A stretch of 64,000 nt of DNA from Lachnospiraceae bacterium (GTDB lineage Bacteria > Bacillota > Clostridia > Lachnospirales > Lachnospiraceae): NCBI GenBank assembly GCA_017935565.1, contig JAGBHK010000045.1, forward strand, positions 62,001 through 126,000, written 5' to 3'. This document shows, in pieces, positions 225 to 54,285 of the stretch; within the stretch, counting starts at the first letter, position 1, and every line of letters starts with the position of its first letter. The position numbers and the translations under genes were made by a program. The notes below the pieces were generated by a model. It worked only from the letters and a program-made list of their open reading frames with translations. It was not told the origin of the DNA and did not search any database.

Positions 225-252
225 ATAATTAGGTATTGTGTGAAAAATTTAA

Positions 253-333
253 ACGAAAAGGCAAACTTATCGAAAGGTAGGGACGCAAAGCCAAGGGTCT
301 TAAGTGTATACTATGACAGCCGGTTATCGAAAG
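253..333 (+). promoter_or_regulatory. cyclic di-GMP-I (GEMM-I) riboswitch upstream of the GH16 gene
   Basis: Hallmarks of the GEMM-I aptamer are present in order: GGCAAA, a GAAA tetraloop closing the first hairpin, GGACGCAAAGCC, a second hairpin opening with GGGTCTTAAG, and CAGCCGGTTA at its 3' side. It lies between a promoter and an intrinsic terminator, which is the usual transcription-attenuating layout. The gene it controls is the secreted GH16 glucanase starting at 457. A copy that is identical through most of the first helix lies at 2266-2345. Whether c-di-GMP turns expression on or off is not decided by the sequence alone. Confidence 0.9.
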
Positions 334-53812: not shown

Positions 53813-53841
53813 TTGACAGAACTTTAATCATCAAATATACT
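53813..53841 (+). promoter_or_regulatory. strong promoter of the structured RNA
   Basis: TTGACA (53813-53818), 17-bp spacer, TATACT (53836-53841). Transcription would begin at about 53848, directly at the first hairpin of the RNA. Confidence 0.85.
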
Positions 53842-53848
53842 AGATATA

Positions 53849-53990
53849 GGAGAAGCGTGCTTCTCTAGGTGGGCTAACACCATAATCTGAAATTGGGGAC
53901 CACGAAAGTGGATGTTGACGAGCAACACTAAAACTCGATTTGCGACCACGAAAGTGGATGTTGGCAGACAACACTAAAATTAGCCAGATT
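53849..53990 (+). ncRNA. candidate novel structured RNA (riboswitch-like or free-standing)
   Basis: From its own promoter the RNA shows: hairpin GAGAAG-CGTG-CTTCTC (53850-53865); hairpin GGTG-GGCTAA-CACC (53868-53881); and two 36-nt repeats 46 nt apart (53898-53933, 53944-53979). Each repeat has a GAAA-capped stem CCAC-GAAA-GTGG and a stem TGTTG-N5-CAACA followed by CTAAAA. The repeats differ almost only in the N5 loop. The loops find complements outside their stems: GGCTAA with TTAGCC (53980-53985), CGAG (53919-53922) with CTCG (53934-53937), and CAGA (53965-53968) with TCTG (53886-53889). A terminator follows at once. I match it to no RNA family with confidence. It occupies most of the 311-bp gap before the next ORF. 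Confidence 0.75.
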
Positions 53991-54035
53991 GGAGAGAATA
54001 TGTAACACAATGGTGCTACTTTCTCTCCTTTTTTT
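53991..54035 (+). terminator. intrinsic terminator of the structured RNA
   Basis: Stem GGAGAGA/TCTCTCC (53991-53997, 54022-54028), with an inner GTAACAC/GTGCTAC stem, and a run of seven T (54029-54035). The 5' end of the RNA, GGAGAAG (53849-53855), could compete for TCTCTCC and act as an anti-terminator. Confidence 0.88.
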
Positions 54036-54081
54036 GTGTGGAAAAGGAGTATATGAAGTTTTTATAAGGAGGCAGGAATAT

Positions 54082-54285
54082 ATGTTTAAATATACATTAT
54101 TACATAATATAAAGGAATTAACTATGAATCCCTCGCAAGTATTAGCCGTTTTTTCTAAAGATAAAAGCGAAGTAAAATATAAAACAATTCGTCATGTGGC
54201 AAAAGGGATTAATTTGTTTAATATAAACTTACCGCAGCAAATAAAGGAAAAACTATCATTAGAACAGTATATTCCTAAATCATAA
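54082..54285 (+). CDS. small hypothetical protein downstream of the structured RNA
   Basis: 67 residues from the ATG at 54082, seven bases after GGAGG. The frame is open further upstream, but this would run through the terminator, so the ATG at 54082 is preferred. Basic and helical (FKYTLLHNIKELTMNPSQVLAVF, HVAKGINLF). No recognisable domain. If the RNA before it is a riboswitch, this is the first gene it controls, followed by the ferredoxin gene. Confidence 0.5.
   Translation: MFKYTLLHNIKELTMNPSQVLAVFSKDKSEVKYKTIRHVAKGINLFNINLPQQIKEKLSLEQYIPKS

What the first reader, a model, noticed from the sequence alone, without database searches (positions are those of the whole stretch)
53849..54035. 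Compact, terminated RNA with two near-identical stem modules and three interlocking loop-tail pairings
A TTGACA-17-TATACT promoter starts directly at a ~190-nt non-coding RNA that ends in a strong terminator. Two 36-nt modules (CCAC-GAAA-GTGG plus TGTTG-N5-CAACA-CTAAAA) repeat every 46 nt, and the only real differences are in the N5 loops. These differing loops have complements elsewhere: loop CGAG with its own tail CTCG; the GGCTAA loop of the upstream hairpin with the tail of module 2 (TTAGCC); the CAGA loop of module 2 with the tail of the upstream hairpin (TCTG). Conserved stems with changed but complementary loops are a mark of a selected tertiary fold. GGAGAAG at the 5' end can compete with the terminator. 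This could be a riboswitch for the small ORF, ferredoxin and HIT-Nudix genes, or a free-standing sRNA. The TAATCTGAAA...GGGGACC part slightly recalls the c-di-AMP (ydaO) aptamer, but the rest does not.
Basis: partly seen in the sequence, partly recalled or inferred. Interest (0 to 1): 0.8.

Follow-up and report, generated by a model that had tools for sequence, protein, structure and literature searches.

The report
Orphan pseudoknot RNA, probable toxin antidote
This small bacterial RNA folds into interlocked repeated knots and, judged by its relatives, is most likely the antidote half of an undescribed RNA-and-nuclease toxin-antitoxin system, whose toxin gene here is only a stump; it awaits experimental proof.

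Summary
Rfam 15 has no match. A covariance model built here (R1) finds relatives in Lachnospiraceae, Oscillospiraceae, Clostridiaceae and phages. All three loop-tail pairings covary: 98.5% of 1,947 cells paired, 194 two-sided changes against 49 shuffled. The riboswitch reading fails: the small downstream ORF is the last ~63 residues of a PBECR4 nuclease (Pfam PF18813). Of 118 relatives with enough downstream DNA, 77 have this nuclease or its debris directly downstream; 41 do not. All 30 PBECR4 loci first fetched have an RNA upstream: this one in 13, Rfam's orphan 'drum' RNA in 17. Promoter, repeated pseudoknots, terminator, predicted RNase: the layout of type III toxin-antitoxin systems, but the toxin is not ToxN-like. 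Toxin-less copies lie in or near phage tRNA arrays, and beside drum RNA in two phage contigs, like antitoxin mimics. Best reading: an RNA antitoxin, orphaned here, of an undescribed type III-like system. Toxicity, neutralisation and binding are inferred.

The parts
53813..53841 (+). sigma-70 promoter TTGACA-17-TATACT
   Evidence: 11/12. In 117 distinct RNAs, 48 have a promoter with at most 1 mismatch within 110 nt upstream, against 1 in one set of shuffles; the -10 mostly ends 26-30 nt before stem A, as here (26).
53849..53866 (+). 5' hairpin GGAGAAG-CGTG-CTTCTCT; a hairpin of other sequence lies here in the bacterial homologues looked at; none is seen in the phage tRNA-array copy L105
   Evidence: fold; homologues, by eye
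53868..53889 (+). module A: stem GGTG/CACC, loop GGCTAA, tail TCTG
53900..53937 (+). module B: hairpin CCAC-GAAA-GTGG, stem TGTTG/CAACA, loop ACGAG, linker CTAAAA, own tail CTCG
53946..53985 (+). module C: hairpin CCAC-GAAA-GTGG, stem TGTTG/CAACA, loop GCAGA (CAGA pairs with tail A), linker CTAAAA, tail TTAGCC (pairs with loop A)
53991..54035 (+). rho-independent terminator (GGAGAGAA...TTCTCTCC, T-run)
   Evidence: stem of 9 by the scan; among the 117 distinct RNAs a stem of at least 6 plus T-run in 82, shuffled 14
54053..54067 (+). likely residual start of the lost toxin gene: ATG AAG TTT TTA TAA (MKFL*) behind AAAAGGAG; compare MKFTKEAAK in L052
   Evidence: inference
54082..54285 (+). 67-aa ORF, C-terminal remnant of a PBECR4 nuclease
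   Evidence: 49% identity over 63 aa to the PBECR4 gene behind the homologous RNA in L002; own HMM E = 1.1e-13 (L060); no Pfam hit of its own beyond a chance one

Best explanation
The RNA is the antitoxin of a type III-like toxin-antitoxin system, orphaned in this genome. In the full locus (seen in relatives) one promoter makes the RNA; a terminator stops most transcripts so that RNA is in excess; some read-through makes the PBECR4 nuclease. The RNA folds into pseudoknot modules, each a hairpin whose loop pairs with a tail: B with its own tail, A and C with each other's tails, which closes the array. These modules probably bind the nuclease and hold it inactive; when the RNA is lost, for instance after phage shut-off of host transcription, the freed nuclease would cut RNA and stop growth. 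Here the toxin has lost all but about its last 63 residues, while promoter, RNA and terminator remain. Shown: structure, covariation, gene linkage, co-divergence of RNA kind and toxin clade, toxin decay. Inferred: transcription, termination, toxicity, RNase activity, RNA-protein binding, release by phage.
For: (1) Linkage: 77 of 118 RNAs with enough downstream DNA (132 less 14 near contig ends) have PBECR4 directly downstream, same strand (52 intact, 13 split, 12 fragments); without identical copies 75 of 113. In same-family genomes 19 of the 30 R1 loci fetched (32 hits) have it; the two hits without loci lie beside PBECR4 places. (2) Converse: the 30 PBECR4 loci that one search returned (of 72 places; best place in each of 30 genomes) all have an upstream RNA, 13 this one (11 of them used to build R1), 17 drum. 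(3) Pairing is strict: R1 goes with one PBECR4 clade, drum with another (43 of 43, 21 of which trained the HMMs; one split, SH-aLRT 100, in 56 proteins). (4) Promoter and terminator are conserved. (5) Tandem modules in variable number, 2 to 4. (6) Toxins decay while RNAs persist. (7) Toxin-less phage copies in or near tRNA arrays and beside drum RNA (L246, L265), like pseudo-ToxI of phage phiTE (PMC3475682, passages including the abstract). (8) PBECR domains are predicted RNases (PMC5512222, section 19).
Against: No experiment. 41 of 118 RNAs have no PBECR4 downstream. The toxin is not detectably related to ToxN by sequence (hhalign probability 1.3%). No structure could be predicted, so the fold rests on Pfam's name. 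Loop B does not always prefer its own tail: of 58 distinct sets it pairs fully with its own tail only in 27, with tail A as well in 22, with tail A only in 7, with neither in 2. Of 20 weaker PBECR4 places looked at, 3 (L274, L276, L281) have no RNA leader by eye, and most others carry leaders unlike this RNA or drum; 9 of the 72 places were neither fetched nor hit by an RNA model.
Confidence: 0.8

Rival explanations
1. A cis-acting leader (attenuator) that controls transcription of the PBECR4 nuclease without binding the protein.
For: It sits between promoter and terminator of the nuclease gene.
Against: Toxin-less copies persist (41 of 118) and phages carry it in or near tRNA arrays, in L105 without visible promoter or terminator, which points to action in trans.
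Confidence: 0.1
2. The RNA is a guide, cofactor or scaffold that makes the PBECR4 protein an active RNP effector rather than inhibiting it.
For: Strict RNA-protein pairing fits any RNP; AbiF, which has an RNA partner, has structural links to ancestral Cas13 (PMC12373285, passages including the abstract).
Against: No variable guide segment is apparent: loops and tails vary mostly in complementary pairs. Orphan RNA with a dead toxin is expected of an antitoxin rather than of a cofactor.
Confidence: 0.06
3. A metabolite riboswitch for the small ORF, ferredoxin and HIT-Nudix genes.
For: Position upstream and compact fold.
Against: The downstream ORF is a toxin remnant; other RNAs are followed by PBECR4 or by unrelated genes; no Rfam riboswitch match.
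Confidence: 0.02
4. Not exclusive of the best reading: in this genome the RNA is still useful although the toxin is gone, as a trans-acting antidote against incoming PBECR4 elements.
For: Promoter, all three pairings and terminator are intact; RNAs without toxin are common (41 of 118).
Against: Cannot be told from a recent loss: BLASTN found no relative in the seven other same-genus genomes (one fragment of 29 nt at E 0.02).
Confidence: 0.35

Closest known systems
Type III toxin-antitoxin systems ToxIN / CptIN / TenpIN
   Same: Promoter, tandem pseudoknot RNA, terminator, then an RNase toxin gene; repeat number varies; toxin-less phage copies (PMC5086642, PMC3475682, PMC4627078: passages seen).
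   Different: Toxin is PBECR4, not ToxN-like by sequence (hhalign 1.3%). The modules add a hairpin, and the first and last modules exchange tails. The ToxN loci of this same genome carry other repeats without R1 match.
AbiF with its ncRNA RCd22 (Rfam abiF motif RF03085)
   Same: Repeated structured RNA upstream of a toxin of another family than ToxN, neutralising in cis and trans (PMC12373285, passages).
   Different: AbiF is another protein family; the window RNA matches no Rfam family.
drum RNA (Rfam RF02958)
   Same: Lies upstream of PBECR4 in 17 of the 30 PBECR4 loci fetched; 24 of 30 drum hits have PBECR4 downstream.
   Different: R1 finds none of the 17 drum loci at E up to 1, and the drum model does not find this RNA; partner of another PBECR4 clade.
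pseudo-ToxI of phage phiTE
   Same: Toxin-less phage-encoded antitoxin-like RNA (PMC3475682, passages).
   Different: Several phage copies of this RNA lie inside or beside tRNA arrays.

Membership tests
Type III toxin-antitoxin | tandem pseudoknot RNA repeats upstream of the toxin gene | tested here: met
   (in relatives; in the window only a toxin remnant follows)
Type III toxin-antitoxin | single promoter, terminator between RNA and toxin | tested here: met
   (by sequence only)
Type III toxin-antitoxin | toxin homologous to ToxN/CptN/TenpN | tested here: not met
   Pfam gives PBECR4; hhalign against three ToxN-family proteins of this genome 1.3%. CptN and TenpN sequences were not compared, nor folds.
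Type III toxin-antitoxin | RNA neutralises the toxin by direct binding; toxin processes the RNA | not testable with these tools
   needs experiment
PBECR4 (PF18813) | downstream protein matches the Pfam model above its cut-off | tested here: met
   For the homologues scanned: 48.8-159.5 bits, cut-off 27. The window remnant alone does not match but matches the homologues.
drum RNA RF02958 | match to the covariance model | tested here: not met
   No hit up to E = 5
ydaO/yuaA c-di-AMP riboswitch | match to the covariance model | tested here: not met
   No hit up to E = 5 to any Rfam family

The most novel reading that the evidence does not exclude
PBECR4 nucleases are the toxins of a broad, undescribed class of RNA-neutralised toxin-antitoxin systems with at least three unrelated antitoxin RNAs: this tail-swapped pseudoknot array, the orphan drum RNA, and a tandem-pseudoknot RNA seen in L272, L277, L278, L280 and L282. 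Phages fight back with toxin-less copies of these RNAs placed in or near their tRNA arrays, down to a single pseudoknot module, or with both RNA kinds side by side.
Probability: 0.6. Interest if true: 0.92.

Novelty: new variant of a known kind. Interest (0 to 1): 0.85.

Why it matters
If true, it adds a toxin family and new RNA folds to the RNA-neutralised toxin-antitoxin systems, gives the orphan drum RNA a testable job, and offers a new example of an RNA-level arms race: phages carrying antitoxin-like pseudoknots among their tRNAs. It makes direct tests possible (toxicity, rescue in trans, compensatory loop-tail mutants).

Tried and rejected
Rfam at gathering and at E up to 5: nothing for the RNA. 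BLASTN of the RNA in phage and plasmid records: one weak short hit each (E 0.6 and 0.04). ydaO likeness, riboswitch reading and terminator competition: rejected (see text). The minimum-energy closing stem is not kept in L002. PADLOC and NCBIfam gave no model for the seven PBECR4 proteins tested; no solved relative by sequence, only matches at E 0.3-0.4. tblastn of one R1-type PBECR4: one phage record (phi1605), no plasmid. PBECR4 is rare in the phylum at large: 3 of 398 genomes, one of them (L238) of the window's own family; L236 and L238 have drum upstream (L238 exactly at the 43-bit cut-off), L237 an unmatched RNA-like leader. Papers: two that I asked for by DOI, which I recall as the drum RNA paper (Weinberg 2017) and the type III survey (Blower 2012), are not held (nothing seen). 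'Not in print' rests on searches only; most subscription papers and bioRxiv are not in that library.

Results against, restated: 41 of 118 RNAs lack PBECR4. Two of 119 genome loci that matched the DNA pattern (L160, L222) gave no R1 hit. The pattern itself fixed loop C as CRGR and tail C as TYARY, so those letters could not vary freely (tail A, loop A, loop B and tail B could). The number of further pair types does not exceed shuffles. Loop B pairs fully with tail A in 29 of 58 sets, for the split. Of the 13 phage RNAs within 300 nt of a tRNA, 6 (L240, L245, L250, L253, L256, L261) score only E 0.04-0.37 with R1 and were accepted by eye, with spans set by hand for some; L112/L115 and L250/L253 are near-copies. 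Random places in the same stretches give 6.1 of 36 on average (max 14 in 5,000 draws), against 13 of 36 seen. Four of the 40 viral loci without an R1 hit (L239, L247, L251, L259) were left out of that count. In one search the promoter scan of weaker PBECR4 leaders was not informative (16 of 20 against 13 shuffled); terminators were (17 against 5), but the scan misses two that I accepted by eye (L282, L283) and finds one each in L276 and L281, where I saw no RNA.

Full report
OBSERVATION. The window has a consensus promoter (53813-53841), an RNA of about 190 nt with two 42-nt repeats 86% alike and 46 nt apart, and a terminator ending at 54035. Its folding energy is z = -3.84. No Rfam family matches, even at E up to 5.

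RELATIVES. A BLASTN search of 61 genomes gave one full-length relative, L002, 69% identical. The other ten hits outside the window's own genome were short; two of them turned out to overlap RNAs of this kind in G014 (L012 and L004). A covariance model, R1, built from the window and 11 homologues, found 32 hits in 28 of 299 same-family genomes, the training sequences included. By record title 70 of the 119 are Lachnospiraceae, 17 Clostridiaceae, 9 Oscillospiraceae, 5 other families, 18 without a family.

STRUCTURE. In the 12 sequences 26 pairs are formed in 99.4% of cells, and 12 pairs change on both sides (0 of 500 shuffles). In 80 distinct rows, 98.5% of 1,947 cells pair; 194 cells change on both sides against 49.1 in shuffles; sliding the partners by 1-3 columns drops pairing to 21-53%. 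That alignment was fitted to R1, whose structure holds the three stems but none of the loop-tail pairs. Among 58 distinct sets of loops and tails (112 complete rows of 133), loop A with tail C is fully paired in 47 (shuffled mean 16.9), loop B with tail B in 49 (12.9), loop C with tail A in 57 (40.5); as cross-checks loop C with tail B is fully paired in 4, but loop B with tail A in 29. Loop B pairs fully with its own tail only in 27 sets, with both in 22, with tail A only in 7 and with neither in 2; in the window it pairs with its own tail only. Examples of change: CAGA/TCTG becomes CGGA/TCCG, and CAAG/CTTG in phi1605; GGCTAA/TTAGCC becomes GGTTGA/TCAACC; CGAG/CTCG becomes CAGG/CCTG or GGAG/CTCC. 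The P1 hairpins change sequence but remain: a stem of at least 4 in 123 of 127 C modules and 99 of 101 B modules, against 59% and 64% in shuffles. The array has 2 modules (for example L064, L066), commonly 3, or 4 (L062) (by eye). Each module is a hairpin whose loop pairs with a tail. B mostly uses its own tail; A and C swap tails and so close the array.

THE GENE DOWNSTREAM. L002 has a gene right after the terminator whose two pieces both match PBECR4 (PF18813; 48.8 and 66.8 bits, cut-off 27); it carries one in-frame stop. The window's 67-aa ORF (54082-54285) aligns with its C-terminus at 49% identity over 63 residues and hits the profile of R1-linked PBECR4 proteins at 1.1e-13. In front of it lies ATGAAGTTTTTATAA behind a ribosome-binding site (54053-54067), probably the old start of the gene (inference). 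So the toxin gene here is mostly deleted. No PBECR4 match was found elsewhere in this genome (81% complete), and there is one R1 copy.

LINKAGE. PBECR4 occurs in 56 of 299 same-family genomes, at 72 places. All of the 30 loci returned (the best place in each of 30 genomes) have an RNA directly upstream: R1 in 13 (11 of these were found by eye and trained R1), drum RF02958 in 17. Of R1 hits, 19 of the 30 loci fetched (32 hits in all) have R1-type PBECR4 downstream, one of them by a 38-residue stretch at E 0.0007 (L064); of drum hits 24 of 30 have drum-type PBECR4 downstream; the better-scoring profile always agrees with the RNA (43 of 43; 21 of the 43 are proteins that trained the profiles). 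One R1 hit (L067) has PBECR4 only on the opposite strand. In the larger set 77 of 118 RNAs with enough downstream DNA (132 less 14 near contig ends) have PBECR4: 52 intact, 13 split, 12 fragments; 41 have none. Without identical RNA copies it is 75 of 113. The protein tree splits once, exactly by RNA kind (56 proteins, SH-aLRT 100); the two clades are homologous (hhalign 95.6%), and the R1 clade is not detectably related to ToxN (1.3%).

OTHER PBECR4 GENES. Of the 42 other places, 13 lie beside an RNA hit; I fetched the upstream DNA of 20 more; 9 were not looked at. Of the 20, two have weak R1 hits (L284 35 bits, L287 22 bits), one a sub-threshold drum hit (L288). By eye 17 of 20 show promoter, RNA, terminator, gene; three do not (L274, L276, L281). 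A scan finds a terminator in 17 of 20 (one shuffle each: 5; not quite the same 17) and 21 loop-own-tail pseudoknots against 4.1 in shuffles, a few of them terminator hairpins. Five (L272, L277, L278, L280, L282) share a third RNA with tandem loop-tail pseudoknots (by eye; the scan recovers its first pseudoknot in L272, L277, L278 and L280).

PHAGES. Of 40 viral contig stretches that match a looser pattern, 36 had an RNA span that I could set. Nine have PBECR4 in the held stretch, and no tRNA was found in those. Thirteen lie within 300 nt of a tRNA gene, none with PBECR4 in the held stretch; at R1 E up to 0.01 these are L105, L106, L112, L113, L115, L257 and L264, and the other six are weak matches judged by eye. 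In L105 the RNA sits 3 nt from tRNA-Ile and 3 nt from tRNA-Thr, with no promoter or terminator visible. L250/L253 abut tRNA-Pro with loop-tail pairs of new sequence, and L241, L245, L249, L256 and L261 hold a single module (by eye). L246 and L265 carry a drum RNA and an R1 RNA (45.5 and 41.2 bits) side by side. L257 has a ROOL RNA next door. The known parallel is pseudo-ToxI of phage phiTE, which mimics ToxI and lets the phage escape (PMC3475682: passages including the abstract).

INTERPRETATION. Layout, repeated pseudoknots, variable repeat number, toxin decay with RNA persistence, strict partner choice and phage copies are what an RNA antitoxin predicts. PBECR domains were proposed to be RNases from sequence (PMC5512222, section 19 read); the phrase 'RNA antitoxin' does not occur in that paper. 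The AbiF system shows that a toxin of another family can be neutralised by an upstream structured RNA (PMC12373285, passages including the abstract). That PBECR4 is toxic, that it is an RNase, and that the RNA binds it are inferences. It works like type III, but membership in the ToxN-based families fails on the toxin.

NOVELTY. No Rfam family; no PADLOC or NCBIfam model for the seven proteins tested; no paper with 'PBECR4' or 'PF18813' in the library; the two passages seen on drum RNA give no function (listing). bioRxiv and most subscription papers were not searched.

Noticed in passing
L013-L042 (17 loci), L073-L102: The Rfam RNA 'drum' (RF02958) lies directly upstream of PBECR4 nucleases (24 of 30 drum hits in 299 genomes), which suggests that it is an RNA antitoxin too.
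   Followed up: partly
L246 6039-6470; L265 628-1023: Two phage contigs carry a drum RNA and a relative of the window RNA side by side, without PBECR4 in the held stretch.
   Followed up: partly
L105, L106, L112/L115, L113, L257, L264: Toxin-less copies inside or near phage tRNA arrays.
   Followed up: partly
L272, L277, L278, L280, L282: A third RNA with tandem loop-tail pseudoknots upstream of PBECR4, without Rfam match.
   Followed up: partly
L270, L271, L273, L283, L286: Further unmatched RNA leaders of PBECR4 genes, possibly more classes.
   Followed up: no
L266, L267, L268 (own genome): Three ToxN (PF13958) loci in the window's genome, with ToxI-like repeats, e.g. three GAGAGYTCCTRCCGTT units in L267.
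   Followed up: partly
window 250-331 and 2263-2344: Two c-di-GMP-I riboswitches.
   Followed up: no
L235: Erysipelothrix phage phi1605 carries RNA plus PBECR4 next to type III restriction-modification genes.
   Followed up: partly
L229 downstream of 6469: RNA followed by what looks like an N-terminal toxin remnant (not hit by the HMM), then ORFs that look like a type I restriction methylase (by eye).
   Followed up: no
L257 1904-2467: A ROOL RNA lies beside a copy of this RNA and tRNA-Met in a phage contig.
   Followed up: no
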